From Bacteroidetes bacterium OLB12 (GTDB taxonomy: Bacteria; Bacteroidota; Bacteroidia; Cytophagales; Cyclobacteriaceae): DNA of 64,000 bases. This document shows positions 1,625-62,060 of this stretch, one piece after another. Each line of letters begins with the position of its first letter. Within the stretch, counting starts at the first letter, position 1. Made by a program: the position numbers and the translations under genes. The DNA lies in the NCBI GenBank assembly GCA_001567185.1, contig LNFR01000048.1, forward strand, positions 1 to 64,000, read 5' to 3'. The notes beneath the pieces were generated by a model, which saw nothing but the letters and a program-made list of their open reading frames with translations, made no database searches and was not told the DNA's origin.

Positions 1625-1751
1625 ATGTCTAAAAAGAAACCCGGCCCAAAAGACAAAGATTATGTCAACAAATCCCAGAAATACGAGGTTGACTACGAAC
1701 CTAAGAGAAAAAACGCCAGCTAAGAAATGGGGTAAAGGTAAATCCAAATAA
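1625..1751 (+). pseudogene. Small lysine-rich ORF, frame broken in a run of six A
   Basis: An ATG at 1625 opens a 32-residue frame starting MSKKKPGPKDKDYVNKSQKY and ending at TAA 1721-1723. Removing one A from the run at 1708-1713 lets it continue as KRKTPAKKWGKGKSK to TAA 1749-1751, giving 41 residues of uniform lysine-rich composition. The segment VNKSQKYEVDYE loosely recalls the start of DUF3606-like small proteins. I do not recognise a function. The break is of the same kind as many others in this window, so a sequencing indel in an intact small gene is the likelier reading. Confidence 0.4.
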
Positions 1752-1829
1752 CCAACCGCACATCCCCCCGCGGGTTATAAGGTGTTCGTCATTCCTTGCC
1801 GCAAAAGGTCACGCCAGCACTTAAAGTCC

Positions 1830-1868
1830 GTGCTGTTGCTAAGGCACAACCATCCGCACAAACAGCAC
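1830..1868. repeat. Inverted repeat, 8-bp arms
   Basis: GTGCTGTT at 1830-1837 is the perfect reverse complement of AACAGCAC at 1861-1868, with a 23-base loop. An overlapping smaller pair AGCAC/GTGCT lies just upstream. No T-tract follows, so it is not an obvious terminator. It may be part of a degraded mobile or recombination element. Confidence 0.45.
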
Positions 1869-1897
1869 CAACTTTTCGCTAAAGCCATTCATGTAAA
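1866..1897. repeat. Diverged copy of a stretch near 60961-61014
   Basis: The order CACCAACT, TTTTC, GCTAAAG-CATTC found here recurs, with an insertion between blocks, at 60961-61014. Both copies lie in intergenic DNA next to hairpins. The match is short and interrupted, so common origin is plausible but not proven. Confidence 0.3.
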
Positions 1898-1903
1898 TTC
1901 TCC

Positions 1904-1936
1904 ACAGCAACGCTGAGCGAAGTCGAAGTGTGCTGT
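1904..1936. repeat. Inverted repeat around a CGCTGAGCGAAGTCGAAG core
   Basis: ACAGCA at 1904-1909 pairs with TGCTGT at 1931-1936. Between them lies CGCTGAGCGAAGTCGAAG, a phrase I know as a dispersed intergenic repeat in Bacteroidota genomes. Only one copy is seen here, so the repeat status rests on general knowledge rather than on this window. Confidence 0.4.
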
Positions 1937-2184
1937 CATGCATTTTGCTTTGGCTGCGTCATTCCTCACGGCAGCTCCTGTGTCCTGCATCCCGCTTCGT
2001 TCAGTCGGCCTCCATCAAGGAAAAAGTACTCACCAGATTTCTTTGTTGTAAGGCACGCGTTAAGTCAGCCTACCTTTGCTTACTGTTTTGATAAGGGAAA
2101 TAAAAAATGCCCGGCTACGATGCAGGTCAAAGCGGGACGTGAAGGTTGAATATACTGCGGGAATTCTTTGCGTACGGGCACTGA

Positions 2185-3120
2185 CTATGAGTCCTGCCTT
2201 AATACCGCACAACGGTTGGTCAGTATTTCTTTATACTTAACCTTGAATTCATCTGACAAAAAACTTTTGTCGACAAAATCCAACAGGAGTTTTTCCCTGC
2301 GCAGGATGTCATCGAACGCATTTCGTATTTGCACATCGGTGAGTTGATAAGACCGGGCGAGCTGAACGAAGTCCTGTTTCTTCAATCTTCTCTTTTTACC
2401 GGCAATGGTCAGCGCACTTTCATCGTTATCTTTTTCGTTGACCAGGTTAACATTCAATAAATCATACGCAGGCGCCAGTTGCCATACACCATCACGATCA
2501 ATCAGGCTAAAGTTCTTCAGGTGCATATCGCTGTTGCCTGTGATGTAGTTGAACAGGGTCAACTCAAACAAGTTGAAAAGATTCAGTCCTGGAAATGAAC
2601 TAAGCTCACCGACTAATTTCCCCACCCGCTCCATGCTGGATTTGTATTTGTCTTCTGTCAAGAGTTCAGACAGCTGGCAAAAATCCTCCATGTGAATCTT
2701 CTTGTCACCCAACCGGTCGATTCGTCTGGTGATATAGGCAAGTTCACCGGTTGCCAAGGGGATCAATGCATGGGGCACCGTTTCGATTTTGCACTGCTCC
2801 GCCAGGTGCATGGTCAGGTCTTCGGTCTCGGACATCTGCTCGTAATATTCGCTGGGTGGTTTCAATATGAATTCACCCATCATCAGGGTAAGCCTACCTT
2901 TCTTCTGCTTCGTTTTTTCAAGCCCCAATGAAATCTTAGGTTGTACACCGGTCATGATACCCTGACTTCTGACGATTCTTTTTGCCAGTTCCTTCATTTC
3001 GGAGAGGCTATACTGCAACTCCGGAGGCTCGGGTGTACCAAACATCTGTACCGAGCATTCAGGATGGTAGTATGAACCATCAGGAAGATCATCTTTATAA
3101 CAAACCAGGCATCTGGACAT
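2185..3120 (-). CDS. hipT: HipT-like serine/threonine kinase toxin (HipA C-terminal domain)
   Basis: 311 residues. This is the kinase half of HipA as a stand-alone protein. The N-terminus carries a small Cys/His cluster (C4, C7, C22). TGVQPKISL at 57-65 is the glycine-rich nucleotide loop. GNSDMHLKN at 195-203 is the catalytic loop and APAYD at 216-220 supplies the metal-binding Asp. HipA-type kinases phosphorylate aminoacyl-tRNA synthetases and halt growth. The length and the separate N-terminal-domain gene just upstream (1-base gap) fit the tripartite HipBST arrangement in which HipT is the toxin. The substrate cannot be told from sequence. Confidence 0.85.
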   Translation of the reverse strand: MSRCLVCYKDDLPDGSYYHPECSVQMFGTPEPPELQYSLSEMKELAKRIVRSQGIMTGVQPKISLGLEKTKQKKGRLTLMMGEFILKPPSEYYEQMSETEDLTMHLAEQCKIETVPHALIPLATGELAYITRRIDRLGDKKIHMEDFCQLSELLTEDKYKSSMERVGKLVGELSSFPGLNLFNLFELTLFNYITGNSDMHLKNFSLIDRDGVWQLAPAYDLLNVNLVNEKDNDESALTIAGKKRRLKKQDFVQLARSYQLTDVQIRNAFDDILRREKLLLDFVDKSFLSDEFKVKYKEILTNRCAVLRQDS

Positions 3121-3121
3121 A

Positions 3122-3436: not shown

Positions 3437-3466
3437 TATCTTTTAATCATGCGCGTGGCGTTAACC

Positions 3467-3667: not shown

Positions 3668-3670
3668 AAA

Positions 3671-3774
3671 TTATAGTAGATATAATACACTAAACCCATA
3701 ATTCCGCTAAATTATATCATTTATAATTATAATTTATACACAATATTCAAATTTATATTATATATAATATAAAT
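3671..3774 (-). promoter_or_regulatory. hipBST promoter/operator region with three palindromes
   Basis: Directly upstream of hipB lie three inverted repeats: TTATA-N5-TATAA at 3671-3685, TTATAATTATAA at 3721-3732, and a perfect 24-bp palindrome at 3751-3774 made of alternating A/T. HipB proteins bind palindromic operators as dimers, so these are natural candidates. The strong AT richness also means chance palindromes are easier to get, which tempers confidence. Confidence 0.5.
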
Positions 3775-4160
3775 ATTGGATCCATGATCTTGAAGGAATG
3801 GAGGCGTAAAAGGGCAAAAGAGAAAAACACGTTGCATCTTTAGTAAGTCTCCACGCTGCGTATTGATTTAGGCAACTGCGCTTATGGCAAACTTCGAGAC
3901 GGTTCTGATTGGTTTAAACACCCCACAAGGGATCAAACGCTTGGTTTGATTTTCGTTTGACATACCCCTCTTAAGGGATCAGCGCAGCTAATCTCTCCTC
4001 TAAAAATATCGTTAACCGAACCAACCGCCTCGTTTGTGTGAGGAATTGGCGCGAACAAAAATGAGGGTTAGCGAATAAGGTGATAAACGCTTTACCTGCA
4101 TATCGCTGTCGATGTGATGAAAAGTAAGAATAATGGAGGCAAAAGTGCTGCCATCAGATA
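3775..4160. other. Gap between hipBST promoter and sulfur island
   Basis: No convincing gene. Open frames are short and unlike known families. A pair AAGGGATCAAACG (3938) and AAGGGATCAGCGC (3972) forms a weak direct repeat. With the corrected end of the neighbouring gene at 4161, bases 4012-4160 are non-coding and not the 50-residue tail that the raw frame suggests. Confidence 0.4.
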
Positions 4161-5565
4161 CTACGCAGTTACTACCGGATTTCCCGGTATTCACCCATTC
4201 ATTAATGCCCCCCGAGTAGTTTTTGATATTCTTAAAACCATGTTTAGCCAGGAGTGAATATCCAATGGATGCCCTATCGCCACCCTGGCAATGAATTATT
4301 ACCTGCTGGTCCTTTTTAATTTTATCCAGGTTTGTTTCCAACGTGCCAATAAAAACGTGATCGGTTCCTTTAATATGTCCCGATTTGTATTCAGAGGATC
4401 CGCGCAAGTCAACAATCTGTGTATGGTTGGTTTTGATTATGTTCTTAAACTCATCCAGCGAAATCATATTCACTTTTTCAAGCGTTCCGCCCTGAGCTGC
4501 CCAACTCTGTACATCGGGCACATATCCATAAATATTATCCAACCCAATGCGCATGAGTTTGCGTACCAGGTCATCGTGTTTGCTTTCTTCGGCAATCAGA
4601 ATAAACGGTTCTTCGTAAGTAAGGAACCAGCCCATCCAGGTGGCAAATGAATTATTTCCCTGTATGTTGATGGAGCCCGGAATAAAGCCGGCTGCAAAAT
4701 CCTGCTTCAAACGGGTGTCAATTACCTTTATACCTTTATCCATTGCTGCTTTCAAATCCTGTACTGATAATTTTTTCAGCTTTGGAACTTCCGTTAATAA
4801 AGGCCTGTCCACTTTATTCAACTTCTTCATCATGGCAAAATATTTAGGCGGCTCGGGTTGGCCATCCAATAAATATTTTACAAAACCTTGTTCATCGTTT
4901 TCATATTGCAAGGCCCAGTTGCGCACCTTCTCATACCCTACGGTAGTGCTGGGTACATCGCCCAGGGCTTTACCACAGGCAGAACCTGCTCCATGGCCCG
5001 GCCACACCTGAATGTAATCGGCCAAATCGCGGAAGCGTTCAATTGATTTAAACATTTGTTGAGCACCAACTACTTTGGTACCTTTTATACCGGCCGCTTC
5101 TTCTAACAAATCGGGGCGGCCAATATCGCCAACAAATACAAAATCACCGGTAAACATCATTACGGGCTTATCGCTGGCAGGTGTATCGGTTAACAAAAAG
5201 CTGATACTTTCCGGAGTGTGGCCCGGAGTATGCAACACTTCCAGTTTTAGATTACCCACTTTAAATACACTGCCATCTTTTAGTCCTTCGTGGGGAAATT
5301 CATACAGCCAGCCCTCTCCGCCTTCGTCCGACAAATACATTTTTGCTCCGGTTAGTGCGGCCAACTCGCGCGCGCCCGAAAGAAAATCGGCATGAATATG
5401 TGTTTCTGCGATGTGGGTAATCTTCATGTTGTTCTGCCTGGCAATTTCCAGGTAAGTATCCACATCGCGCTTGGGGTCTATTACCAATGCTACTCCTTCT
5501 TTCTGGCAGCCAATAAAATAACTTGCCTGGGCTAAGGTTTTGTCGTAAACGTGCTGAAAGTACAT
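4161..5565 (-). CDS. Metallo-beta-lactamase fold / double rhodanese fusion protein
   Basis: Reconstructed as 467 residues. Residues 1-230 are a metallo-beta-lactamase domain of the persulfide dioxygenase/ETHE1 type, with THIHADF at 55-61 (the fourth position is Phe where many relatives have His), HTPGHTPES and the metal-binding Asp in FTGDFVFVGDIGRPDL. Two rhodanese domains follow. The first lacks the catalytic Cys (LIAEES); the second has HCQGGDRAS with the Cys. Relatives oxidise glutathione or protein persulfides and move sulfane sulfur. The raw frame runs on to 4012, but dropping one base at about 4179 restores the ending TGKPVVTA and a stop at 4161. It closes the sulfur island, 157 bases after the SoxB-like gene. 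Confidence 0.85.
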
Positions 5566-5722: not shown

Positions 5723-7528
5723 TTACCGAAACTCATAACCAACCCCCATTAATTGGGTAAGCAAGGTGGGGGGCGCATCGGTGGCGGTAATCCGGTTTTC
5801 GAGTTTTGGTGCGATGGGCGAGTGCTTAGCCAGATATTCTTGTATTAGGGTATGCAAGGTTGCCCCCATTCGTTTCGGTGCAGCCACATTATCTACGCGG
5901 CAAATAGTCGTGTCCGGATCGCCCTCGCGTTCGCAGGCTACAAAGGTATAGGACTTGGCCCGGTCCACCGGAACTCCTTTCACCTTTATCCAGTTTATTC
6001 GCTTGCCGGCTTCGTTGGCAATGGTAAAATTCACCTCCATACCTTTAAAGCGAACTACCCAGCCGCCAAATCGTTTGGCCGGATCTGCAAACGCATTGTG
6101 TAGCTCCGCCTCTAACCAATCCCACAGTTGCTGGCCGGTAATGGTTCCCTGTTTGGCTTCGCTATCAACGGGCAACATGCTCCAGAGATAATCCATCGTT
6201 ATTTCAGCAACGCCTGTTTTTGCATCGGGTACCAAAGGCGGACAAAATCTAAATCCGTTACTAAGCGCTATATCAGGATTATATTTCCACATGATGGCAT
6301 CGGTAATGAAATTGTCCATGGGAGTTTCAATTACATAATAGCGAACGAGTGGTGTTTTGGTTTTGCCAATAATACGATCTAATTCTTTGGCAAACGGTTT
6401 ACGCGCTGTTTCTACCAGGGCCTTCATTTCTTTGTCTTCCGGATACAACTCCGGATCAACATCCAATAACTGGTACGACTGATCTTTGATCTGTCCTTTC
6501 TCAATCACCAAATCAAGTTTGGCAATGAACGAACCAAACGCCCCCGGTTCTGTTACTTTCGCATACAACCCGGATATTGGTTGGCGTACGCGCTCGTGCG
6601 TATCGGCACCCAGTATATAATCCACACCCTTTACAAAGGGCATGTTAGCCAATCCTATCTGTTGGGCTAGTCCCATGTGTGTTAAGAGTATTACCAGGCT
6701 ACAGCCCTCATACTCGCGAAGCACTTTAATATAGCGAGCTACATTTTTTTCAGGATGCGTAAACCGGATTCCTTCGCTGTAAGCTGGCGACTGCCGCCTG
6801 GGTGTAAGCGGATCGTTGTAACCAATAAATCCGATTTTTATTCCACCTATCATTTTAACATAGTAGGGCGGAAAGATCAACTCTCCATTAAAGGCATCGT
6901 TGGTTTGATGATACATGTTGGCGCATATTTTCGCACTATTGTATGCAAACATGTCTTTCATCATCATCTCTTTACCATATACTACTTCCCAATTGCCTGG
7001 CAGGATCAAGTCGTAGCCAATATTATTCATTAGCGGCACAATGGCCTGGCCTTCGCTTAGTGCAGCCACCCCTCCACCCTGAAAACAATCCCCACCATCA
7101 ATCAGCATGGTATTTTCCGGGTTTTGGGATCGCAGGTGCTGAATCATTGATTTTAGTACTGCATACCCGCCTCGTTTTTTTATAAACCGGTTTACCTGCT
7201 TCAATAAAAAATTCATCGTGCGTAAGCAATTGAGCATGGATGTCGGCCGTGTGCAGCAAGGTTATTGTATTTTAGCTTTGTCCTGCTTTACGGCACCATT
7301 GGCAACCATTTCTTTATGCTTCATCGCACCTTCATGGGTATTCAGGGCCGATGCCGAAACCGGAATCAGTCCCCCGCCTACACCTAAGGCCAGCCCCAGG
7401 CTACCGGCTCTCTTTAAAAATTCTCTTCGGCTATTCTCCGAAATCTGCACATGCAGTTCTTTCTCTTTATCAGAGATTGTTTCGCAACACTTACAAGCGC
7501 AGGTTGAGCTATGCCGATTCATGAACAA
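5723..7528 (-). CDS. soxB: SoxB-like thiosulfohydrolase / Tat-exported metallophosphoesterase, frame broken twice
   Basis: The N-terminus has a twin-arginine signal (SRREFLKRAGSLGLALGVGG). The body is a 5'-nucleotidase-type metallophosphoesterase: DGGDCFQG, GNWEVV, LLTHMG and GADTHER supply metal ligands, with a C-terminal 5'-nucleotidase domain. The Trp in GNWE resembles SoxB. SoxB hydrolyses sulfate from the SoxY-bound intermediate in periplasmic thiosulfate oxidation, using dimanganese. The frame breaks near 7256-7262 and at the T-run 7175-7181. The piece between, in another frame, reads ITLLHTADIHAQLLTHDEFF and contains the essential D-x-H metal motif. The two indels cancel, so both outer parts share one frame. 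No soxYZ is visible, so a nucleotidase is the alternative. Confidence 0.7.
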
Positions 7529-11882: not shown

Positions 11883-12866
11883 TCAGCGCTTTGCTTTTTC
11901 GGCCAGACTCATTTTTTCTTTTACGCTTTCCAGTTTTTGCCCATAGTGCAAGCTTGCATTTATTTCGTATCCAAAAAGCAAAACCATGGTGATGAGTTGT
12001 ATCCAAATCATTAATGCAATAAGCGCCCCGATGGATCCGTACACTTTATTGTAACTTCCAAAGTTGGTAATGTAATACGAAAACCCATATGAAACTGCCA
12101 GCGTGCCGAGGGTGGCCAGGAATGATCCAATCGAAAAAAAAACGCCAGTTGTAATGCACTGCCGGCCCGAAGTAATAGATAAACGAAATTCCAATGAAGA
12201 ATACAAGGAAGATTACAACAAAACGCACCAGAAACAGCAGCTTAATGTTGCTGAGGTCCACATGACTAAATTCTGAGAGATGCGCCATCATGTAGTCGAG
12301 CAATAACTGGCCGCCAATCAGTAACACAACGGCCAGCAGTAAACTCATGGCCAGCATAAAGGTAAGGCCGGTGGCTGTCAATCGCATGCGTAACACATTT
12401 CTTCTTTCTACGGTGCGATAACAAGCATTGAAGGCGCGCATCAGGGCCATCATACCATTGGTGGCCAGGTATAGGGCAAAGAAAAACCGATGGTTAAAAG
12501 TCCACCCCGTTGGTTGCTTACAATATCCAACACGGTAGATGAGATAACCTCATTCATACTGGGGGGCAGGTATTCGCCCATAAATGTAATGATGGCATCT
12601 CTGTTGATAGCTGGAAAAAACCGGGTGATATATGGAATGAGTGTGAACAAAAAGATGATTGCCGGAAACGTAGCCAAAATAAAATTATACGCCACCCCGT
12701 TGCTGCGATCCATTATTTCATCTTCAGAAATATTATGAAAGAATATCTTCAGAAATTTATATAGCGACAGGTTTCCAAATCGCTTAAAGCGGATGCGCTT
12801 TAACCAATTACGGCTGGTACGGGCCGTATTAAATTGTAATATTCGTTTGCGTGTAACATACTTCAT
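11883..12866 (-). CDS. YihY/BrkB-family inner-membrane protein, frame broken twice
   Basis: Three raw frames together form one YihY (UPF0761) protein of about 327 residues with six membrane helices, for example GVAYNFILATFPAIIFLFTL, LMALMRAFNACYRTVERR and IGALIALMIWIQLITMVLL. Adding one base in the run 12482-12486 and removing one from the nine A at 12134-12142 restores it. The start at 12866 (MKYVTRKRI) overlaps the stop of the thioesterase gene as ATGA, showing coupling. Function of the family is unsettled (once called RNase BN). Both breaks are in homopolymers, pointing to sequence error. Confidence 0.8.
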
Positions 12867-13270
12867 GTAAAATAAGGTGTTAACAACTCCGAAAAAACCT
12901 GCGGAGGCCGGCAAGGTTTTCCGGTAGCCTTATCAACAAAAACGAGCAGCGTTTCGCCCTGGTTAATTAATTTCTCCGCTTCGTTAAATATATCGTATTC
13001 AAACCGAATGCGCACACCCGGCTTTTCCCGTATCGTTGTAATAATCTTCAGGTTGTCATCGTAGCGGGCAGCTGCAAGATAGCGAGAATGATTTTCAAGC
13101 ACGGGCATCATCACACCCATGTCTTCCAGTTCTTTATAGGTTAGTCCCAGTTTGCGCAAACTTTCTACACGTGCCACTTCATAATACATGGCATAGTTGC
13201 CATAATACACATAGCCCATCTGGTCGGTTTCACCATAGCGCACTCTGATATAGGTTTCTGATACGTACAT
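12863..13270 (-). CDS. YbgC-type acyl-CoA thioesterase (hotdog fold)
   Basis: 135 residues. RVRYGETDQMGYVYYGNY is the active-site signature of the 4-hydroxybenzoyl-CoA/YbgC thioesterase family, with the catalytic Asp in ETDQMG. Such enzymes hydrolyse short or medium acyl-CoA thioesters in the cytoplasm. The start overlaps the mltG stop by one base (TAATG) and its stop overlaps the YihY start (ATGA), so all three are translationally coupled. Confidence 0.9.
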   Translation of the reverse strand: MYVSETYIRVRYGETDQMGYVYYGNYAMYYEVARVESLRKLGLTYKELEDMGVMMPVLENHSRYLAAARYDDNLKIITTIREKPGVRIRFEYDIFNEAEKLINQGETLLVFVDKATGKPCRPPQVFSELLTPYFT

Positions 13271-34372: not shown

Positions 34373-34394
34373 TCCAATCGAAAGATTGGTCTTG

Positions 34395-34427
34395 AAAGGC
34401 TTTAGAACATCTAAAGCCTTTTTTTTA
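34395..34427 (+). terminator. Terminator of the small lipoprotein gene
   Basis: AAAGGCTTTAG at 34395-34405 pairs perfectly with CTAAAGCCTTT at 34411-34421 over a 5-base loop, followed by more T. It lies between the lipoprotein and the SprT-like gene. Confidence 0.88.
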
Positions 34428-34448
34428 TTTTTCGCTTTTCAAGCGCCT

Positions 34449-39096: not shown

Positions 39097-40055
39097 ATGC
39101 GCGAAGCTTCCTTTGTAAGTCGTAATAAAACCCGTTGGCAGGAGTTCGAAAAGGCTCTTCATAACCCACAACAAACCCCACCGGACAAACTGGCTGAATT
39201 ATTTATTCAGATTACAGACGATCTCTCTTTTGCGCGCACAAAATATCCGCAAAGCCGAACCACCCAATACCTTAACTCGCTGGCCAGTAAAATTCATGGC
39301 GAGATTTATAAAAATAAAAAGAAGAGAAAACCGGTTTATTCTTTTCTGGAAAGAAGAGCTGCCGGCCGTCATGATTACCGCACACAAACAATTGTTGTAT
39401 GCGTTTGTAATTTTTGTTGTGGCTGGAATTATAGGCGCGGTTTCAGTTGCTTATGACGACACCTTTGTGCGTTTGATCCTGAGCGATGGGTATGTAAACA
39501 TGACACTCGAAAACATAAAGAAGGGCAACCCTACCGAAGTCTATTCTTCATCGGGTGAAATGGATATGTTTTTTATGATTACCCTTAACAACATCATGGT
39601 TTCCATCCGGGTGTTTGTTCTTGGTGTAATGGCCTCGTTGGGCACCGGGCTAATGCTATTTTACAACGCAGTCATGGTAGGTACTTTTATGATGTTCTTT
39701 TACCAGGAAAGTCAGCTTAGCCAAGCCTTGCCTGTTATTATGTTGCATGGCACGATTGAACTTACTTCCATCGTAATTGCCGCGGCCGCAGGATTTATCA
39801 TGGGTAACAGCATTTTATTTCCAGGCACGTATTCGCGCCTGGCGTCATTCAAAATGGGTGCTATAAAAGGGTTAAAGATTGTTATGGGCCTGGTTCCATT
39901 TTTTTATTCTCGCTGGCTTTATCGAATCATTTATAACCCGCTATGCATTTATGCACTGGAGTATCAAGGCTGCCATCATTGGGCTCTCCGCATTTCTTAT
40001 GATTTATTATTTTATCATTTATCCAATTCAGTTAAAACGCAATGGAAGAATTTAA
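39097..40055 (+). CDS. SpoIIM-family (stage II sporulation protein M-like) membrane protein, frame broken twice
   Basis: Reconstructed as about 318 residues: a soluble N-terminal part (MREASFVSRNKTRWQEFEKA) then five or so membrane helices (LLYAFVIFVVAGIIGAVSVA, VLGVMASLGTGLMLFYNAVM, MLHGTIELTSIVIAAAAGF). Removing one A in 39310-39330 and one T from the seven at 39899-39905 gives the ending LVPFFILAGFIESFI... QLKRNGRI. SpoIIM homologues outside spore formers belong to the MoxR-linked membrane operon. Its end overlaps the next gene by 14 bases. Confidence 0.82.
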
Positions 40056-41034
40056 ACTTATAGAATTTCAGCAGACACGCGATTTCAGCCGAAAAATTAA
40101 CACCACGTTTGAATTTCTGCGTCAGAATTTTAAAGCCCTGATGAAGTCTATCCTCTACATTGCGGGGCCACCGGTGTTAGTGGGCAGTTTGCTGCTGGGC
40201 TCATTCATTGGAGATTTTTTTTCGCTTCTTCAGGGGGCGCAAACCGGTAGCAACCCCGAGCTGGCCGCTGATTATTTTCTTTCTGTAAGTTTCTGGCTGC
40301 AGCTTAGTTTAATGATCCTGCTTTTGTTTATCAGCTACATTATTACCATTGCAACCATAAATTCATACATCATTTTGTACCAAGAAAAGCAAACCAACAA
40401 ACTTGAGGTAAGCGAGGTTTGGAATAAAACCCGCCAGTTATTCTGGCCCTACCTGGGTACAACCGTTCTTTTCTTTCTGGTTTTCCTGGTTGTCTACATT
40501 GTTTTGCTGATTCCTGTTTTTATTCTGGGCGATATGTCCAGCCTGTTGCTGTTATTTATTGGATTTCCGGTGCTTATATGCGGTGTGATTTATTTAATGA
40601 TCAGCGCTTCCTTAACCTATTTTGTACAAGCCTACGAAAAAAAGAATTTCTTTGACTCCATTGCCCGCTCTTTTCGTTTGGTTAACAATGGCAAGTGGTG
40701 GAGTACTTTTGGTTTGCTTTTTATTCTACAAATGATTGTTGGTACAATTTCATACATCTTTCTTATTCCGTATTACATTATTGTATTCACTGCCTCGCTT
40801 CATTCCGCGCAAAGCGGAGCGCCTTTTGAGTTATCCGAAACAATGGGGCTCATCATTCTGGTGTGCTTTACCTTGTACTACATGGCTCAGATGCTGCTGT
40901 ATTCATTACCCCACCTGGGCGTTGCATTTCAATACTTCAACCTGGTAGAGTTAAAAGAAGCCCGCGGCCTCATGTCGCAAATTGAAACGCTGGGCAAGCC
41001 GGATGCCGGTCCACGGCCAGAAGAAAATTTCTAA
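40042..41034 (+). CDS. Hypothetical multi-pass membrane protein of the MoxR operon
   Basis: 330 residues with six membrane helices (for example ILYIAGPPVLVGSLLLGSFI and LFWPYLGTTVLFFLVFLVVY). It starts within the end of the SpoIIM gene, so it is coupled. The family (DUF4013/GPDPase-membrane-like by shape) is regularly found between SpoIIM and DUF4129 genes in Bacteroidota. No catalytic motif. Function unknown. Confidence 0.75.
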   Translation: MEEFKLIEFQQTRDFSRKINTTFEFLRQNFKALMKSILYIAGPPVLVGSLLLGSFIGDFFSLLQGAQTGSNPELAADYFLSVSFWLQLSLMILLLFISYIITIATINSYIILYQEKQTNKLEVSEVWNKTRQLFWPYLGTTVLFFLVFLVVYIVLLIPVFILGDMSSLLLLFIGFPVLICGVIYLMISASLTYFVQAYEKKNFFDSIARSFRLVNNGKWWSTFGLLFILQMIVGTISYIFLIPYYIIVFTASLHSAQSGAPFELSETMGLIILVCFTLYYMAQMLLYSLPHLGVAFQYFNLVELKEARGLMSQIETLGKPDAGPRPEENF

Positions 41035-44009: not shown

Positions 44010-45340
44010 GTGAAGTTAATTCGTGCATTATATCTGGGCAATCGCCTCTTTGCGCTAACCGCAGCCATTGTGGGGATTTTTATTCTCACATTCGTTCTGG
44101 GCAGAGGTACAATCATTCCAAAAATTTTATTGCTGCTCTTGGTGGCAACGGTACTCACCGATTTGCTCTTGTTGTTCAGGGTAAAAAAAGGGTTGCGGGG
44201 CGAGCGTTTAGTTGCTGAAAAACTTTCGAATGGCGATGAAAACGAAATTGCCATTTACCTCGAAAGCTTTTATTCATTTCCGGTTTCATTGCGCATCTTC
44301 GATGAAATTCCACATCAGTTTCAGCGCAGAGATCTGGAGTTTAACCTGGTAATGGAGCCGGGCTCAAACAAAGTGGTGAAATATTTTTTACGACCTGTAA
44401 AGCGCGGTGTTTATTCTTTCGGATCTGTAAACGTGTTAGCCCAAACCAAACTCAAATTAGTAGCGCGCAGGTTTAAGTTCTCGAACGATAAAGAAGTACC
44501 TGTATATCCCTCGTACATTCAAATGCGCAAGTACGAGTTGCTGGCCATCCATAACCGGCTTACCATGTCGGGCATAAAAAAAATCAGACGCATTGGCCAC
44601 AACCAGGAGTTTGAGTTGATTAAAGAATACGTAAGTGGTGATGATTTTCGCACCATCAACTGGAAAGCTACCGCGCGTAAATCGCGGTTAATGGTTAATC
44701 AGTTTCAGGATGAACGCTCGCAACAGGTGTATTCACTCATCGATAAAGGGCGTGTAATGCAAATGCCCTTTGCGGGAATGAGTTTGCTGGACTATGCCAT
44801 TAATGCCACGCTGGTTATTTCAAACATTGCCATTAAAAAATCAGACAAAGCGGGGCTTATTACTTTTCAGGATAAAATCGGGAACATTATAAAAGCGGCC
44901 CGGCTCAACAACCAGATGGCTACTATTCAGGAAGTATTGTACAATCAGAAAACCGCTTTTTTGGAAACGGACTATTCGGTGCTTTACAGCACAATTCGCA
45001 GAACCATCAATCAGCGCAGCTGCTTTTTGTTGTTTACCAACTTCGAAAGCATTCATGGTTTGCATCGGCAACTGCCCTACCTGCTTAGCCTAAACAAAAT
45101 GCACCTGCTGATTGTGATCTTTTTGAAAATACCGAACTGAAAACCCTTACCGAAAACCCGGCCGAAAATCTGAAAGAAATTTATTACAAGGCCATAGCCG
45201 AACGATTTAGCTTTGAAAAAAGGTTAATCGTTAAAGAACTTCAGAAACACGGCATCCAATCTATTCTTACAACCCCCGAAAATCTTACCCTTAACACCAT
45301 TAACAAATACCTGGAACTAAAGGCCAGAAATTTGATTTAG
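44010..45340 (+). CDS. DUF58-domain vWA-like protein, frame broken near its end
   Basis: Reconstructed as 443 residues from a GTG at 44010, 1 base after the MoxR stop. Two helices at the N-terminus, then the DUF58 core (EFELIKEYVSGDDFRTINWK, RKSRLMVNQFQDERSQQVYS) and a vWA-like part starting SLIDKGRVMQ. One T is missing in the run 45120-45124; adding it gives IVIFFENTELKTLTENPAEN and a stop at 45338-45340. Partner of MoxR in a putative membrane-complex assembly system. Confidence 0.85.
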
Positions 45341-45431
45341 TCGTTTTCACATTAATTTACCTTCCCTTCGCTGGTTTCTGCCTCAGAAACACGCAACAAG
45401 TCTGTTTCTTTATTATTTTTAATATTCTAAA

Positions 45432-48400
45432 ATGGTTTTTATGCGTTACGGAATCGTGTTGCTAATGTGTTTGCTGGTTGGGGTAGCACAGGCTCAATGG
45501 AAAAGTGAGTTGCCAGCTATGGAAATAAAGAAAGGGCAAGGGGGTACCATTTGCTACCATAAGCCTGAAGATGCAAACCTCATCATTCCGCCACCGGCCG
45601 CTTACGAAGCCTGGAAACGAAATCCGGCAACAAGAACTTCGGCAACTACATTTGAAGTTGAATATGTTAACTTTTCAGAAGAAGCTAAGCAGGCATTCCA
45701 AAAAGCGGTTGACATTTGGTCGGGGTTGATTGAAAGCCCGGTGCCCATTAGAATCTTAGCCGTGTGGCAACCCTTAAGCGGAAGTGTTTTGGGTGGGGCA
45801 GCACCCGGAACCTATATTCGTGATTTTGACGGGCCCCAAAAATACGCACCTGGTATCCGGTTGCACTGGCCGAAAAAATTGCCGGACGAGAATTTAACGC
45901 GGCCGATTCCCCGGATATTTTTGCTCAGTTTAACAGCTCGTTTGGTGATTGGTCTTTCCGAACAGATGGTGTTCCTGTATCCCAAAAAACAGACCTGGTT
46001 TCGGTAGTACTGCACGAAATAGGTCATGGGCTAGGCATTATAAAGGGTTACGATGTAAGCGGATCCGAAGGTGTGATCTCCGACTTCTTTTCAAACTTTC
46101 ATGTTCCATACGATTATTTTCTTGAAAACACGAGTGATCTGAATTTAGTACAAGGCTTTACACCACCCTCTGCCTCCTTGCGTGCAGAACTTACCAGTAA
46201 TGCGTTGCTTTTCAGATCTCCCTTGCTTTCAAAAACACCTATTGATAACAGGGTGAAAATCTACGCTCCCAGTACATTTGCAAGCGGCTCCAGCATTGCG
46301 CACTTAGATGAAACAACTTATAACAACACACCAAACGCTTTAATGACTCCGTCTATCGGCAATGCGGAAGTAATGCACAACCCGGGAAATCTGGTAATGC
46401 GCATGCTGGCCGATATGGGTTGGGTAAACACCCGCATAGTTCATACCCGCTTACCCAATACTGAAAATGTTTCAACTCCATACCAGGTGGTTGCTACCCT
46501 GGAAGCAGATACTAAAAACCAGGATGGAGGCGCATATACGTATAATGCAAGCGAAGTAAAATTGAATTACACAACCAATGGTACAACCTTTACGGAAGTA
46601 CTCATGACGGCCACCGGGCAACCCAATCAATTTGAAGCTACTATCCCTTCCACCGGAAGTGCCATTACCTACGGCTATTTTATTTCAGTAAAAGATAATC
46701 TAGACCGAACGTTAACAAAGCCTGGAGTTTATACTGCGGATGGTGCCGCGCCTATTCAGGGATTCTATGATTTTACAGCCGGCCCCGATACAAATGCTCC
46801 GGAAATTGTTCACTCGCAAAAAGCATTTATTCTTGCAAGTGCCACCGAATTAACGTTAGAAGCAACCATTACCGATAATATCGGGATTCTTCAAGCTACC
46901 CTGGAGTATCAAATTAATGATGGAGGTTTATTAACGGCACCCTTCACCCTGGTAACTGGCACAACCGATCAATACACTACAACCATATCGCTTCCTGCTT
47001 TAGTGCAGGGCGATATGTTAAAGTACCGGATTAAAGCCACGGATAATTCTGTTGCACAAAATGTTGGCGCTGCCCCTTCGGTGTCTTCTTTTTATGAAGC
47101 AAATGTGGTAAGCCTGGCCGAAACCCAGAATTCCTATTTCAATGATTTTAATTCAACCTCTTCTGATTTTTTTGGTGATAATGTTTTCAATATATCTACG
47201 CCTGCAGGCTTTACAAATGGGGCTATTCACACCAGCCACCCATACCCGGTGGGCACCGGAGATGGTTTTGTCAGCAACTTTGTTTACCAGTTGCGGGTTC
47301 CCATCAAACTTAAATCAACGGATGCAACCCTGAAGTTTGATGAAATTGTATTGGTAGAACCCGGAGAATCGGGCTCCGTTTTTGGCGATGACGATTTTTG
47401 GGATTATGTAGTAGTGGAAGGCTCGAAGGATGGCGGTATTACCTGGATGCCAATGGCCGATGGCTATGACTCCCGTGCGCAAACCGCATGGCTGAATAAA
47501 TACAATAGTGCGTCCGATAATAATAATCCCCCCAACTCCTCTGCTTTGGGTGATCCTTCTCTTTATGTAACCCGAACCATTAACATGCTGGGGACTGGAA
47601 ATTTTGCCGCCAACGATGAAGTAGTTATCCGTTTTCGATTAAAAACCGACCAACTGGTGGTAGGCTGGGGTTGGGCAATCGATAATCTTAAAATTCAGAT
47701 TGATGATACACCACCCACAATACTGCATAACCATATCGACTATGTAGTTGGCCCCGCTGATGAAATTCTGGTAACACTACAACCTTCTGATGCCTCGGGC
47801 CTCGACAAAATTTATGTCGATTTGAAATTTAACGATGGAGAAATCCAAACCGAAGAAATTATTGCAGAAGAACTTGTAAGCGAATACACGTTCCCCGTTA
47901 CTGTTGATGGTAGTTTTTTTGACGTTGGCGATAAATTAGAATACCGCATTCGGGTTACTGATCTGATTGGCAATGAAGCAACGCTTCCTGCCTCCGGATT
48001 TTTCCAGGTGCCCATCATCAATTTTGGTACACCGGTAACGCAATACGTTACAGACTTTAACACTGCCAATGCCGATTTTGCAGGTAACTTTTTTACCACT
48101 ACCCAACCAACCGGATTTACCAGTAATGCTATGCACACGGTACATCCATATCCAAATGGTTTTGGTTTAACAAATAGCACCTCTTCCTATGCACTTACTT
48201 TACTGAAACCAATTACAGTTAGTGCCACTAATTCGTACATTCAGTTTAGTGAAATTGCGCTGGTAGAATACCTCGGAACCGCCCACAAGGATTTTGTTGT
48301 GGTTGAAGGATCAAAGGATGAAGGCGAAACCTGGCACCAATTAGTTGATGCCTACTCTGCCCGGTCGGTTACCGTCTGGAAAAATGCTTTTGATGGAAAA

Positions 48401-52506: not shown

Positions 52507-54937
52507 TTACTTTCTTATTACCGCTCCCATTTTTCCTTCAAAAGCACCCATTAACCCGCGCCATCACTTTTTCAATCTCTTCATCGGTAAGGGTTTTGGA
52601 TTCATCCAGCAAGGTAAAACCCAATGCATAGGCTTTTTTTCCTTCCGGGATCTTATCCCCTTCATACACATCAAACGCAATGATCTCTTTCACTATTTTT
52701 TTACCTGTATTTAATACAAGTGCCTTTATTTCATCAAAGGTTACTTGCTTATCCAATACCAGCGAAAGATCGCGCCTTACTTCAGGAAATTTGGGAACCT
52801 CCTGCACAACGAACTTAGGATTTGCCGATCTGAAAAGCAAGGATGTATTTAAGTCGGCATAAAAAATATCCTGCTTTATGCCAAAATCTTTGGTAAGCGC
52901 AGTTTTGATCTTACCCAGTTTGCCAATTTCTTTATTGCCCTTCAGCAACTTTATGCCGTATTCAAACAACGGGTCGCTTAATTTTTCTTGTTCGGGGTTT
53001 TCGAGATTTACTTTTTCTAACACCTGCATAACCTGTTGTGCCAGGTCGTAATAGGTTACGGCTTTGGTTTTGGTTTGCCAGTTTTCGGTTTCGGTATTGC
53101 CACTAATGTAAAGTGCCAGGCGCTCTTCTTCTGTGTATCGCCTGGTAACCTCTTCTCCTGCTTCATTTTTCCGATAAATTTTTCCAAACTCGAATAGCTT
53201 CAGGTCTTTTTGTTTGCGGTTAATGTTGTAGGCGCACACCTCCAGGCCGGTAAACAGCATGGTTTGCCTTAAAATGCCTTGTTCCTCACTAAGTTTATTC
53301 AGCATCTCTACAGGGGCACCGGCAAACGTAAGGTTATGCTTTTGCTGATAGGCTAAATTGGTAAGTGAATTGGTTAAAATTTCATAGAAACCATTCCCAA
53401 CCAATTGGCTGCTGAGGGTACGCTTAAATTTATTGCTGTCTTTTTCCGGAAACTCGGCCAAATAATCGGTACCGGCTATTTCTGTAAGTTCAATGTTATT
53501 GAATCCATAGATGCGCAGAATTTCTTCCACTACATCGGCTTCTTGTGTTACATCTACCCGGTAGGGTGGTACCGAAACAGTAAAGGCCTCTGCTTCTTTC
53601 TGAACAATGTTGATATCCAGATTTTGGAGAATGGCAAAAATTTCTTCGCGTGGAATGGCTTTGCCGATAAGCCGGGTAATGTGTTTATCCTTTACGGAGA
53701 TCAGCCGGTTTTCAATTTTCTCTGGATATATATCGGTTAAATCTGAAGAGATGGTTCCACCTGCAAGTTCTTTAATTAATAAGGCAGCGCGTTGCAGCGC
53801 ATATACAGTAAGATTCGGATCGGTTCCTCTTTCAAACCGGAATGAAGCATCGGTTTTTAATTGATGGTGCATGCCGGTTTTGCGCACGTAATTGGCCGAG
53901 AAACAAGCACTTTCCAAAAACAAATTTTTGGTTGTGGAGGTTATGCCCGATTTGATACCGCCAAACACACCGGCAATGCACATGGGTTCGTTTGCATCGC
54001 AAATCATCAGGTCGTTTTCGGTAAGGGTACGATCCTTGTTATCCAATGTCTTAAATACAGTACCCGCAGGCAATGTTTTTACGACTACCTTATTGCCAGC
54101 AATTTTATCCGCATCAAAGGCATGCAGCGGCTGGCCGGTTTCATGTAAAACAAAATTGGTAATATCAACCAGGTTGTTGATGGGGGATAGCCCAATAGAT
54201 TTTAAACGATTCTTCAGCCACGCAGGCGATTCTTTTACGGTTACCCCGGAAATGGTTACCGCAGAATACCGCGGGCATGCCGTTGTGTTTTCTACATGAA
54301 CCGATATGGGTAGATTATTATTTTCGGTTTTAAAGTTTGTTACATCCGGAAGTTTAAGTGTTCGCTGCCTGGCGGCTTTTATATCGCGGGCAACGCCTAT
54401 ATGCGATGCGGCATCGGCCCGGTTTGGGGTTAACCCAATTTCCAATACATAGTCGGTATCTACATTAAAATAATCGGCAGCGGGTGTTCCGTTGGGTGCA
54501 GTTGTATCCAGCACCATAATTCCTGCATGGCTTTCGCCCAACCCGATTTCGTCTTCGGCACAAATCATTCCCTCTGAAACTTCTCCTCTTATTTTGGTGG
54601 CCTTAATTGCAAAAGGTTCGCCTTTGGTTGGAAATACTGTTGAGCCAGGCAGGGCTACAACTACTTTTTGTCCGGCAGCTACATTGGAAGCTCCGCACAC
54701 AATGGGCAACACCTTGTCGCCTACATTAACTGTTGTAACCGAAAGTTTGTCGGCATTGGGGTGTTTGCTGCATGTTAGTACTTCGCCAATTACAAGTCCC
54801 TTTAATCCGCCTTTTATGGTTTCGAAGGGTTCTACACTTTCTACTTCCAGCCCAGTAGAGGTTAAAACTTTACCAATATCCCCGGCTGTTTCCGGAATAT
54901 CGATGTATTGCTTAAGCCAGTTATAGGAAATCTTCAT
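52507..54937 (-). CDS. pheT: Phenylalanyl-tRNA synthetase beta subunit, frame broken near its end
   Basis: Reconstructed as 809 residues. tRNA-binding domain near 40-150 (VIGEVLTCSKHPNADKLSV), B3/B4 editing domain, B5 (ITRLIGKAIPREEIFAIL), catalytic-like core and FDX-ACB anticodon-binding end (FPEVRRDLSLVLDKQVTFDE). One C too many at 52555-52557 truncates the tail; dropping it gives MARLMGAFEGKMGAVIRK and a stop at 52507. Essential, so the break is almost surely an error. Confidence 0.95.
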
Positions 54938-55025: not shown

Positions 55026-55651
55026 TTATGGATGATAACTCATTTCACCCGCACGGATGGCCACCTTTAATAAATTTTCTTTCGGAGGAAAGGGGCAGGA
55101 ATATTTATCGTTGTAGGCGCAATAAGGGTTGTAGGCCAGGTTAAAATCCAGTTCAACTGTTTTTGCAGCCGGTACTTTCTTAACATCGAGGTAACGCCCG
55201 GCACCATACGTTTCGCGGCCACTGGTTTCGTCTGAAAATGCCAGAAAAAGTTTACCACGCTGAGGGCCTGTTTCCATTACTTCCAGAATCAGCAATTGAT
55301 TTTGTACACCATCCAATTCAAATTCGGCAAACGCATATTCCAAATATTTCTGTTCCTTGCCATCGCTGGTGGAAAGGATAACCACTTTTTTTCCTTCAAT
55401 GGGTTTTAGTTTTGCTTTTATGCGGTATCGGATGTCGGCCGGAAAAAATTTCAGGCTATCAAACGAAAGGGTGTCTTGCAGAAAAGGAGATCCAGCACCA
55501 CGCTTCATGAAAGTTTCCATCTCGCTGCGCTCCTTTTGGATATACGCTACATACCCCTCGTCTGATGATTCCGGGTTTGGGCGCATAAAAAAATAATCAG
55601 CGCAAGCACAGCCACTACCAGAATTACAGGAATTGCCTTCGAACTTTTCAT
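55026..55651 (-). CDS. DUF1684 protein, frame broken near its start
   Basis: Reconstructed as 208 residues starting MKSSKAIPVILVVAVLALII, a signal anchor, from the ATG at 55651. The A-run 55587-55593 is one base short, so the raw frame runs on into the neighbouring gene. DUF1684 signature: ERSEMETFMKRGAGSPF, DETSGRETYGAGRYLDV, DFNLAYNPYCAYNDKYSCPF. Function unknown. Its start overlaps the upstream stop as ATGA. Confidence 0.85.
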
Positions 55652-56973
55652 TGGTGTGCGGTGGGTGGGGTAGGGTTGGTATGGCGTACAAATACCGGGT
55701 TTTGTTGATTGTACCAATACCTGATCGAATCTGACTTTTGTGAATACCGTTTAAAAAATTCGGGTACCGAAATATCTGCCAGGTTACCGGGCGAATTGGT
55801 GAGCACGCAAATCGCAATTTTATTTTTCTGATCGATGGCAACTTCGCTCCGGTATCCATTTACATACCCGCCATGATAGAGTAACTGGTCATTTTGAAAA
55901 TTTATTACCCGCCAACCCAATGCATAGTAAGATGAGCGTGGCCTTTTCCACCGGTTAAAGTTTCGGTTTTTGGAAATAGCCTTAACCTGGGGAGAAAATA
56001 TTTCTGTTAAGGTTGTATCGGCCATGATGGCCTCGCCCCCGGTAAGCAATGATTTTAACCACAAGGCCATATCTGCAATGCTGGCGTTTACTCCGCCTGC
56101 AGGCGAAACATTGTAATACGTATCGGAGATGGGTACGGGTACCCAATGTTTGCGCGCGAAGTAGTGGGGTTTGGCTACATTATCATTATTCATAATGGCC
56201 ATATAAGATGCCGAACTGTTGTACATACCCAGTGGCTTGAATACATTTTCAGTTAGTGCGCGTTCAAAGGTTTGGTGGGTAGCATTCTCTACCACTTTTT
56301 CAATCAGGCTATAGCCCACATTTTGGTAGCTGTAAATCTGGCCGGGCTCGCCAAAAAGTTTTACTGTTTTTAAACTTGCCAATAAGGTATCCAGCGGCAA
56401 ATGTTCTTCAATCATATTGGTGTACGCATGGTATGGTAAGCCGGTGGTGTGCGAAAGCACATGGCGGATGGTTACCTTGCTGGCATGCTCGGGCGAACTA
56501 AGTTGAAACTGCGGATAATATTTTAAGATGGGATCATCCCACCCGATGAGGTGATGACTTACCAGTGTACCGGCCAGTACCGATGCAAAGCATTTTGAAA
56601 CCGAGCCCAGCCTGAATACGGTATGCACATTGATAGAATCGGTGGTGCCGGATTGTTTTAAGCCAAAGCCTTTTAAAAAAACAACAGACGTATCGTAAAC
56701 AATGGCTACCGCAGCACCCGGGGCCATGCCACGGGCCATGGCGTTTTTAAAAAACTCCTGGTACGAGTTTAAGGCGTCTTGCAGATACGGGTTGGCAGTA
56801 GCCACAACCTCAACTGCTGTAACGGGTGCAGCGGGGGGTAGTGCGATAGAGTCTGTTACCTTATTTTCAGTTGTTGTAGTTGCTACAATGCGTTCTTCGT
56901 GCAGCGGCAAATACATAAACCCCACAAACAATATTAAAAGCACACCTACTAAAATGCTATACGCTATTTTCAT
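55648..56973 (-). CDS. Serine hydrolase of the beta-lactamase/DD-peptidase (class C) fold
   Basis: 441 residues, N-terminal helix (AYSILVGVLLILFVGFMYL). VFRLGSVSKCFA holds the SxxK catalytic Ser and Lys, YSYQNVGYSL gives the YxN motif, LLYHGGYVNGY the HxG motif. Such proteins are esterases or D-amino-acid peptidases in the periplasm; resistance is not implied. Operon with radC (start overlap ATGA) and the DUF1684 gene. Confidence 0.9.
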   Translation of the reverse strand: MKIAYSILVGVLLILFVGFMYLPLHEERIVATTTTENKVTDSIALPPAAPVTAVEVVATANPYLQDALNSYQEFFKNAMARGMAPGAAVAIVYDTSVVFLKGFGLKQSGTTDSINVHTVFRLGSVSKCFASVLAGTLVSHHLIGWDDPILKYYPQFQLSSPEHASKVTIRHVLSHTTGLPYHAYTNMIEEHLPLDTLLASLKTVKLFGEPGQIYSYQNVGYSLIEKVVENATHQTFERALTENVFKPLGMYNSSASYMAIMNNDNVAKPHYFARKHWVPVPISDTYYNVSPAGGVNASIADMALWLKSLLTGGEAIMADTTLTEIFSPQVKAISKNRNFNRWKRPRSSYYALGWRVINFQNDQLLYHGGYVNGYRSEVAIDQKNKIAICVLTNSPGNLADISVPEFFKRYSQKSDSIRYWYNQQNPVFVRHTNPTPPTAHQ

Positions 56974-57752: not shown

Positions 57753-57767
57753 TAATATTGGTAAAGG

Positions 57768-58023
57768 TTACGCTAACGCGTTTACCCGCTTGGTAAGCTG
57801 TGATTTCTGATTGGCAGCTTTTTTCCAATGAATGATATTCTTCTTAGCCAGTTTATCAATCATAGAAGACACTTCCTTCAAAAGGGCCTGCGCCTCATCT
57901 TTCTTGGTAGTGGCGTTCTAATTTCTTGATTTGGGTACGGGTGGTTTTGGCCTGATAGCGGTTTCTTACACGCTTGGTCTCATTTGCCCGGATTCTTTTC
58001 TCTGCTGATTTATGATTTGCCAT
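57768..58023 (-). CDS. rpsT: 30S ribosomal protein S20, frame broken once
   Basis: Reconstructed as 84 residues, the normal S20 length: MANHKSAEKRIRANETKRVR at the start and HWKKAANQKSQLTKRVNALA at the end. The raw frame ends after ERHYQER because of one extra base at about 57913-57922. S20 binds 16S rRNA. Monocistronic. A real truncation would be severely harmful, so the break is best read as error. Confidence 0.95.
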
Positions 58024-60414: not shown

Positions 60415-60468
60415 TGCTTTGTTTGCCGGAGACATTGTGGTTTGATTTAAGTGAATCACAAAGTCTCA

Positions 60469-60750
60469 CTAAGTATTCAAGAGTTCACGCACAATATCAT
60501 CCCACTCTTCCGTTAGTGGTTTTTTCGACATCTTACGGTTAGCGCGATGATACCAGTATTGGGCATTGCTGTTATCACCTTCTACCCGGTGTAAATAGGC
60601 GTGTATCCATGAACCATCTGTTGTATGCACATCTTGCGCAAGGGTATGGGCCATTTCCCAATCGCCTTTGGCTTCGTACCACATGGCTTGCAACAGAACA
60701 GCAACCGGTGGTGGCTGCTGTTGAGTAAGTGAGTTTTTAAATTCAGGCAA
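60469..60750 (-). CDS. Conserved hypothetical protein
   Basis: 93 residues from a TTG at 60750. AMWYEAKGDWEMAHTLAQDV, WIHAYLHRVEGDNSNAQYWY and RRANRKMS-like blocks are a pattern I know from uncharacterised bacterial proteins. Soluble, tetratricopeptide-like helices. A few more N-terminal residues may belong to it, but a stop precedes nearby and the start is uncertain. Confidence 0.65.
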   Translation of the reverse strand: MPEFKNSLTQQQPPPVAVLLQAMWYEAKGDWEMAHTLAQDVHTTDGSWIHAYLHRVEGDNSNAQYWYHRANRKMSKKPLTEEWDDIVRELLNT

Positions 60751-60859
60751 TGTGGTGATAAATAGTTGGTAGAATTTTACTCAAAACTTTTTTTGGTAAG
60801 CTCTATGGCTAAAAAAACTCTTTTTCATTAACCAATCAAACGTATTGTTATGAAGCCGA

Positions 60860-60942
60860 CAACTATTTGGTAGACACGAAAAAGTTTAGTGAAACACCTT
60901 TCACTAAACATCTAAAAACAAGGCGCAACTAACTGGTAGACA
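60860..60942. repeat. Hairpin flanked by direct repeats
   Basis: CAACTATTTGGTAGACA (60860-60876) and CAACTAACTGGTAGACA (60926-60942) differ at 2 of 17 bases. Between them GTTTAGTGAAA (60884-60894) pairs perfectly with TTTCACTAAAC (60899-60909) over a 4-base loop. The symmetric layout suggests a mobile or recombination element. Confidence 0.5.
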
Positions 60943-61015
60943 ATCCACAGAGCTAACAAGCACCAACTATTTTTCAGTAATATGCCTAAATTCAGCTAAA
61001 GTCATTCGTAAGCAA

Positions 61016-61049
61016 AGGCGTCTGTCGGCTTTGAGCCGTCTTGACGCCT
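61016..61049 (-). repeat. Nested hairpin downstream of the SRPBCC gene
   Basis: AGGCGTC (61016-61022) pairs with GACGCCT (61043-61049) and, inside, CGGCT with AGCCG over a TTG loop. It lies 8 bases past the SRPBCC stop at 61058, but no T-tract follows on the minus strand, so terminator function is doubtful. Confidence 0.45.
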
Positions 61050-61057
61050 GAAATCGA

Positions 61058-62060
61058 TTAGTTTTTCTTTATAGGATAATAAATTTCAGTTACCCACTTC
61101 GCAGTGTCTTTTTCCAACATCGGGTCGGTAACGTAAACTTCAATGGGCGCGCCATTCATAGTAAGTCCTTTGTATTGAAGGTACTGCTCAAGTTCCATGT
61201 GCAAGGCCATCAGGTTATTGTAATCGCCTTTGTAAATTCCTTTAATCGCGCTGCCGCCCGCAACAGTTTCCACTTTGTATTTGGCAGGTACCTTGGCATC
61301 GGCTGCAACCGGTAGGGCACAAATCATATCCATCGATTCTTCCGAGAAGGCTGGATACATGGCAAATGGATAGCCGGTTATTTCAACTTTGGATTTCTTC
61401 AATGCAGTTTCTAACTCGCCATACATTTTAGCCATTTGTGCATTAATGGCAACGGGATCTTTCGGACTCATGGTATGCATTAAACCTACATAGCTCATGG
61501 CAGGCAAAATTTCTTCTGTAATTGTATAAGTGAATTTTGGTTTTGCTTCCGCGATGTCTTTTATTTTTTTACAAGCATAATCAAACGACTTTTCAATCTC
61601 ACCTTTCATAAACACATTAATCCACCGACCAATCGGGTTCATGCCTGTGTCGTTGCTGAAGTTGAGCGTAAGTTTTGTGTTGTCACCATCGGGGTCTAGC
61701 GCATAAAGCCCGGAAGCTGGATTGCCTCCAAAATCCATCGATAGCGCTACCGATTTATTCGGAATACTTTCGGTGAGGGAAATAGTTCCGGTTTTTAGAA
61801 TGGGACTGTCCCAACTATAGGATGCCCCCCGTGCCGGATGTTTTGTCACCATAGGTGATTTTCATATTTGCCGTATCGAGTGTATTCCAGTACTGCCAGT
61901 TTTCCCACCGTTTCAGATCATTAATTTCTTCGAATACGGCATCTGCAGGAGCATTAATAGAAACACTCTTCGAAACTTCCAGTTTGCCCGGAAGCACAAA
62001 GCCCACTAATAGCAAGACTAAAATGAGTCCTGCTAATACTAAAAGAATCTTTTTAAGCAT
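61058..62060 (-). CDS. SRPBCC-fold plus GyrI-like effector-binding protein, frame broken once
   Basis: Reconstructed as 333 residues. N-terminal helix (MLKKILLVLAGLILVLLLVG), then a START/SRPBCC domain (VSINAPADAVFEEINDLKRW, ENWQYWNT), then a C-terminal GyrI-like domain (VEITGYPFAMYPAFSEESMD, VYVTDPMLEKDTAKWVTEIY). One C too many in 61825-61830; removing it joins TYGDKTSGTG to ASYSWDSPIL. The pairing is common in Bacteroidota. It binds a hydrophobic ligand presumably, with no known reaction. Confidence 0.82.

What the first reader, a model, noticed from the sequence alone, without database searches (positions are those of the whole stretch)
1708..61830. About 21 single-base indels split ordinary genes across the window
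Reading frames break and resume in the correct family sequence at about 1708, 4179, 7175, 7258, 9597, 12134, 12482, 22992, 23811, 29237, 31672, 34180, 34995, 39310, 39899, 45120, 45831, 52555, 55587, 57915 and 61825. Most lie in runs of A, T, C or G, and each is repaired by one base. rpsT and pheT, both essential or nearly so, are among them. True decay would not hit that set, so uncorrected long-read error is the simplest cause. Gene counts and 'truncated' proteins from this sequence should not be trusted as they stand.
Basis: partly seen in the sequence, partly recalled or inferred. Interest (0 to 1): 0.7.

Follow-up and report, generated by a model that had tools for sequence, protein, structure and literature searches.

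The report
Sequencing errors copied between two genomes
The broken genes are sequencing mistakes in a draft genome, probably made on an Ion Torrent machine, and several of the same mistakes seem to have been written into a second public genome by software that repairs reading frames with database proteins.

Summary
The frame breaks are in the sequence and are artefacts, but the stated cause, uncorrected long-read error, is probably wrong. The assembly (G000) has 45 supported frameshifts in 166,600 nt of aligned coding sequence on three contigs; six relatives have 47 in 993,411 nt. Beyond the breaks substitutions still favour third codon positions (share 0.71-0.75; 0.76 in unbroken genes), so the genes are not decaying. 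G000 (3,596,296 bp, 118 contigs) matches bin BCD5 of Speth 2016 (118 contigs, 3.6 Mb): Ion Torrent PGM data, frameshift-corrected before deposit. Its nearest relative, CP058703.1, is a Nanopore chromosome repaired by MEGAN-LR, which inserts N guided by NCBI-nr; a chromosome from that data was binned to Bacteroidetes bacterium OLB12. At five sites inserted N's put CP058703.1 into G000's wrong frame, at four of them although its own bases were in frame. Two public genomes thus agree on errors that neither organism seems to have.

The parts
4012..5565 (-). Metallo-beta-lactamase-fold/rhodanese gene; break near 4179 makes the ORF run on about 50 residues beyond the end seen in 7 relatives; CP058703.1 carries an N that gives the same run-on
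5723..7300 (-). 5'-nucleotidase-family gene with two breaks (about 7180 and 7265), each 4 of 4 relatives; not shared with CP058703.1
9094..9629 (-). Sulphur-transport (PF04143) gene, break beside its start at about 9600 (3 of 3 relatives)
11883..12914 (-). One BrkB-family membrane protein gene read as three ORFs; breaks at about 12140 and 12486, each 6 of 6 relatives; not shared with CP058703.1
22094..23225 (-). Beta-eliminating lyase gene in two ORFs, break at about 22996 (6 of 6); CP058703.1 has a different break here
34386..35064 (+). SprT-like gene, break at 34951 (6 of 6); wrong-frame tail to 35003 repeated in CP058703.1 through an inserted NN
39097..40063 (+). SpoIIM-family gene, breaks at 39323 (shared with CP058703.1, no N) and 39900 (private), each 6 of 6
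44010..46007 (+). DUF58 gene and the next gene, breaks at 45122 and 45833, each 6 of 6, both shared with CP058703.1 without N
52515..54937 (-). pheT, break at 52554 (6 of 6) altering about the last 13 codons; same altered end in CP058703.1 through an inserted N
55026..55859 (-). DUF1684 gene, break at about 55565-55592 (6 of 6)
57780..58020 (-). rpsT (ribosomal protein S20) read in two pieces, break at about 57911-57917 (4 of 4)
61058..62060 (-). GyrI-like-domain gene, break at about 61828 (5 of 5)

Best explanation
The breaks are base-count errors in the assembly, not mutations. The most likely source is Ion Torrent PGM sequencing, which miscounts homopolymers: the genome is probably bin BCD5 of Speth 2016 (taken here to be 'Bacteroidetes bacterium OLB12'), whose frameshifts were only partly removed before deposit. 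In a second step the broken OLB12 proteins, by then in NCBI-nr, guided the MEGAN-LR frame repair of a related Nanopore chromosome (CP058703.1). Where such a protein ran on in the wrong frame, the software inserted N or NN so that the Nanopore sequence followed it. Shown: the breaks, their excess over relatives, the continued selection on the genes, the N's that create G000's wrong frame, and the published methods. Inferred: the name of the window's genome, the sequencing platform, and that OLB12 proteins were the guides at these sites.
For: 45 supported frameshifts in 166,600 nt on three contigs against 47 in 993,411 nt in six relatives. Third-position share of substitutions beyond the break 0.75 (private breaks) and 0.71 (shared), 0.76 in genes without a break. 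Homopolymer of 5 or more within 8 nt at 61% of 38 events against 9% of random positions. 118 contigs and 3,596,296 bp against BCD5, 118 contigs, 3.6 Mb, IonTorrent PGM, frameshifts corrected by script and by hand. CP058703.1 was repaired with MEGAN-LR, which inserts N or NN after DIAMOND alignment to NCBI-nr; a 4.2-Mb chromosome of the same data was binned to OLB12 and aligned to GCA_001567185.1. Of 7 N-bearing wrong-frame sites of CP058703.1 in the mapped stretches, 4 lie at a G000 break with the same net frame; 1.28% expected per site, binomial 9e-7. At 52554, C70:21178 and C80:14167 its bases without the N are in the relatives' frame; the same holds at 4179, where leaving out that N gives the end and stop of the relatives.
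Against: The platform rests on contig number and size, not on a sequence match to the named record. The Bragg abstract says PGM over-calls short and under-calls long homopolymers; several gains here are in long runs. 28 of 44 G000 breaks have no CP058703.1 break within 20 nt, and three read through in the same way (7180, 12140, 39900) were not copied. Of the 7 N-bearing wrong-frame sites, 2 lie at no G000 break and 1 at a G000 break of another net frame, so wrong N's also arise otherwise. The codon test says nothing at 52554 (13 codons, no substitution).
Confidence: 0.87

Rival explanations
1. Uncorrected long-read (Nanopore or PacBio) error in the window's own assembly.
For: Homopolymer indels at 2.7 per 10 kb of coding sequence; losses and gains of one base.
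Against: Contig number and size match an Ion Torrent bin; signs are balanced, unlike the Nanopore relative with 70 losses and 10 gains among 109; the genome is in 118 contigs. Sequence alone does not exclude it.
Confidence: 0.1
2. Real frameshifts: recent decay, or lineage-specific indels shared by G000 and CP058703.1.
For: 16 of 44 G000 breaks lie within 20 nt of a CP058703.1 break where 1.10 is expected, 12 with the same net frame.
Against: Selection on the relatives' frame continues beyond the breaks, shared ones included. CP058703.1's own bases are in the relatives' frame at 4 of the 5 N sites. rpsT is broken, but found whole in 16 of 18 other genomes, none found in 2.
Confidence: 0.03
3. 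Shared breaks arose independently because both platforms miscount the same homopolymers; no copying took place.
For: Five clean shared breaks carry no N (39323, 45122, 45833, C70:63, C70:15916), several at runs of about 5-6.
Against: It does not explain inserted N's that move an in-frame sequence into G000's wrong frame at 4179, 52554, C70:21178 and C80:14167. Four of 56 unrepaired single-base losses lie at same-frame G000 breaks; a Fisher test against repaired sites gives P = 0.001, but one cell of that table (1) was set by hand.
Confidence: 0.1

Closest known systems
Ion Torrent PGM homopolymer indels (Bragg 2013, PMC3623719, abstract and outline seen; Speth 2016, PMC4821891, passages, one section and outline seen)
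   Same: Indels mostly at homopolymers, persistent after assembly; the Speth passage names them as common in IonTorrent data
   Different: Several gains are in long runs, whereas the abstract describes over-calling of short and under-calling of long runs; effects of the authors' correction script are unknown
MEGAN-LR / DIAMOND frame-shift correction (PMC6469205 and PMC7966762, passages seen)
   Same: N and NN at frame changes; the 2021 discussion admits inappropriate or inadequate correction from false alignments or lack of close references
   Different: Here the trouble comes from a close reference that is itself broken, so its errors appear to be copied; the passages I saw do not mention this

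Membership tests
Sequencing artefact (not pseudogenes) | Frameshift rate well above that of related genomes measured in the same way | tested here: met
   45 in 166,600 nt against 47 in 993,411 nt
Sequencing artefact (not pseudogenes) | Selection on the intact reading frame continues beyond the break | tested here: met
   third-position share 0.71-0.75 against 0.76
Sequencing artefact (not pseudogenes) | Concentration at homopolymers | tested here: met
   61% of 38 against 9% of random coding positions
Sequencing artefact (not pseudogenes) | Absent from accurate reads of the same DNA | not testable with these tools
   no reads held
Ion Torrent assembly (BCD5 / OLB12) | Size and contig number of the published bin | tested here: met
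Ion Torrent assembly (BCD5 / OLB12) | Sequence identity with the deposited record | not testable with these tools
Ion Torrent assembly (BCD5 / OLB12) | Over-called short and under-called long homopolymers | tested here: inconclusive
   both gains and losses; several gains in long runs
Errors copied by protein-guided frame correction | Inserted N's move the target into the reference genome's wrong frame more often than chance | tested here: met
   4 of 7 N-bearing wrong-frame sites, binomial 9e-7; plus 4179
Errors copied by protein-guided frame correction | Target's own bases were in the right frame | tested here: met
   4 of 5 sites (4179, 52554, C70:21178, C80:14167); at 34951 one base was missing and NN was inserted
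Errors copied by protein-guided frame correction | The broken proteins were the guides used | not testable with these tools
   method, database and binning to OLB12 are in print; the alignment file was not seen

The most novel reading that the evidence does not exclude
Sequencing errors can pass from one public genome to another of independent origin through protein-guided frame correction: an Ion Torrent draft's wrong frames were written into a Nanopore chromosome, in places where its own bases were right, so that the two genomes falsely confirm each other.
Probability: 0.85. Interest if true: 0.5.

Novelty: not a real feature. Interest (0 to 1): 0.38.

Why it matters
Both genomes stand as species representatives in the collections searched here. 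By simple scaling of three contigs G000 may hold several hundred false frame breaks (inference), enough to distort gene counts, completeness and presence/absence calls. The copied errors matter more widely: agreement between two assemblies is a usual argument that an odd gene end is real, and here that agreement seems to have been made by software. Genomes repaired against a protein database may carry errors of their nearest database relative, and N-marked sites make this testable.

Tried and rejected
Real decay: rejected by the codon-position test. Alternative genetic codes were not tested; the breaks are frame changes. Rfam and tRNA scans of the window gave one tRNA-Met and led nowhere. PMC7648391 (hybrid assembly of an anammox system; passages seen) was looked at as a possible source and set aside. 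A first, smaller run of the break caller on the window only (15 supported in 52,739 nt) was replaced by the larger one. For copying of errors by frame correction I ran two searches of the held open-access papers (at least 4 of the terms required): one unrelated paper and none. I claim no more than that.

Rows dropped: of 45 supported G000 events, 7 were left out of the 38 used for signs, homopolymers, the codon test and the N test because they lie at gene starts or show mixed signs or stops (C48 39091, 58113; C80 14615, 27592, 35838, 45717, 47786). The sharing count (16 of 44; 12 in the same net frame) keeps them except C80 45717, which has no counterpart; 3 of the 12 are in this group, so 9 are clean. 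A further 44 G000 clusters called by one relative or a minority are not counted. 4179 is in none of these counts.

Full report
What was checked. The window is contig C48 of a draft genome of 3,596,296 bp in 118 contigs, 92.5% complete. A PheT search put it among Cyclobacteriaceae MAGs, with a closed Nanopore chromosome, CP058703.1 (isolate SSA6, handle G029), as nearest relative. Over the mapped parts of three contigs the two are 94.4% identical. I fetched matching regions of G029 and of six other relatives, wrote a frameshift-aware protein-to-DNA aligner, and called breaks where at least two relatives and at least 60% of those spanning a site agree.

The breaks are there. In the window 17 are supported in 51,917 aligned nt. 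Position 4179 is shown separately by gene ends, 3 have weaker support and 2 have no homologue in what I held. The other two supported calls, 39091 and 58113, lie just before gene starts and are probably false. Two further contigs give 9 in 50,654 and 19 in 64,029 nt. Six relatives give 47 in 993,411 nt, the background, which includes real pseudogenes and false calls. rpsT is read in two pieces here; of the 18 other genomes searched it is found in one piece in 16 and not found in 2.

They are not mutations. Comparing G000 with G029 in the frame of the other relatives, 0.76 of substitutions fall on third positions in genes without a break. Beyond a break, where a real shift would have ended selection, the share is 0.75 for breaks private to G000 and 0.71 for clean breaks shared with G029. 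Most breaks sit at homopolymers: 61% of 38 within 8 nt of a run of at least 5, against 9% of random coding positions.

Where they come from. Table 1 of Speth 2016 lists bin BCD5, Bacteroidetes, 118 contigs, 3.6 Mb, 90 of 111 markers and 3876 CDS, where BCD1 of equal size has 3000. [quoted passage not shown] The match in contig number and size is the ground for the identification; that BCD5 is the one named OLB12 is inference. The Bragg abstract names inaccurate flow-calls, over-calling short and under-calling long homopolymers, as the main PGM error; several gains here are in long runs, which does not fit neatly.

The nearest relative is not independent. G029 has 109 supported breaks in 207,958 nt, 70 of them single-base losses, and is sprinkled with N: 681 runs in the stretches held. 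The 2021 paper lists it as PAO1-tig00026560, 4,262,704 bp, CP058703.1, repaired with MEGAN-LR. The 2019 paper says how: DIAMOND aligns to NCBI-nr and one or two N's are inserted at each frame change. It bins a 4.2-Mb chromosome of the same bioreactor data to Bacteroidetes bacterium OLB12 and aligns it to GCA_001567185.1. The 2021 paper names OLB8, OLB11 and OLB12 as the three members of this group in that data, and its table gives the other two to other contigs, so CP058703.1 is the OLB12-like one by elimination.

Copied errors. Of 44 G000 breaks with a counterpart, 16 lie within 20 nt of a G029 break where 1.10 is expected, 12 in the same net frame, 9 of these clean. Seven wrong-frame sites of G029 in the mapped stretches carry an N within 15 nt. 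Four lie at a G000 break with the same net frame, where 1.28% of positions would by chance (binomial 9e-7). At 52554 (PheT), C70:21178 and C80:14167 the Nanopore bases alone are in the frame of the relatives, and the inserted N or NN breaks it. At 34951 one base was missing and two N's were put in, which gives G000's frame and not the right one. Read with its N's, G029 repeats G000's wrong-frame residues: the tail and stop of the SprT-like protein and the altered end and stop of PheT. A fifth site, 4179, lay too close to the protein end to be counted: with its N, G029 follows G000's run-on; without that N it ends, with a stop, like all 7 relatives compared.

What does not fit. 28 of 44 G000 breaks have no G029 break within 20 nt, and three that I read through in the same way (7180, 12140, 39900) were not copied. 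Of the seven N-bearing wrong-frame sites, two lie at no G000 break and one at a G000 break of a different net frame. Five clean shared breaks carry no N. For these I suppose the same raw loss in both and no repair because the guide was broken too. Four are single-base losses, and a Fisher test on them gives P = 0.001, but one cell of that table was set by hand. I did not see the alignment file, so the guide proteins are inferred.

Verdict. The frame breaks are artefacts and of no biological interest in themselves. The useful result is that some appear to have been passed to a second public genome by homology-guided repair, so that the two seem to confirm each other.

Noticed in passing
window 50025-50173: A palindromic dispersed element of about 148 bp with inverted ends (fold energy about -60 kcal/mol) sits at the breakpoint where synteny with CP058703.1 jumps from about 2.90 Mb to about 1.755 Mb; about 20 related places are listed in CP058703.1 and in G037. 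It looks like a miniature transposon (recalled, not tested); the join could be a rearrangement or a misassembly.
   Followed up: partly
L161 (G000:C70) 17868-18001: Another dispersed repeat of about 134 bp, again at a join in the alignment with CP058703.1, with a 94% copy elsewhere in C70 and a partial 98% copy (90 bases) at the very end of contig C15.
   Followed up: partly
window 60746-60988: About 240 bp between genes with no counterpart in CP058703.1 or in the relatives aligned there, and no second copy in 469 kb of G000 held.
   Followed up: partly
window 1-3955: No DNA match in CP058703.1 beyond fragments of under 80 bases; holds a HipA-like and an IrrE/M78-like gene, so possibly a mobile or strain-specific stretch.
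   Followed up: no
window 23372-23860: PIN-domain gene with what reads like a small partner gene broken at about 23811; probably a toxin-antitoxin pair (PIN by Pfam, the rest by reading).
   Followed up: no
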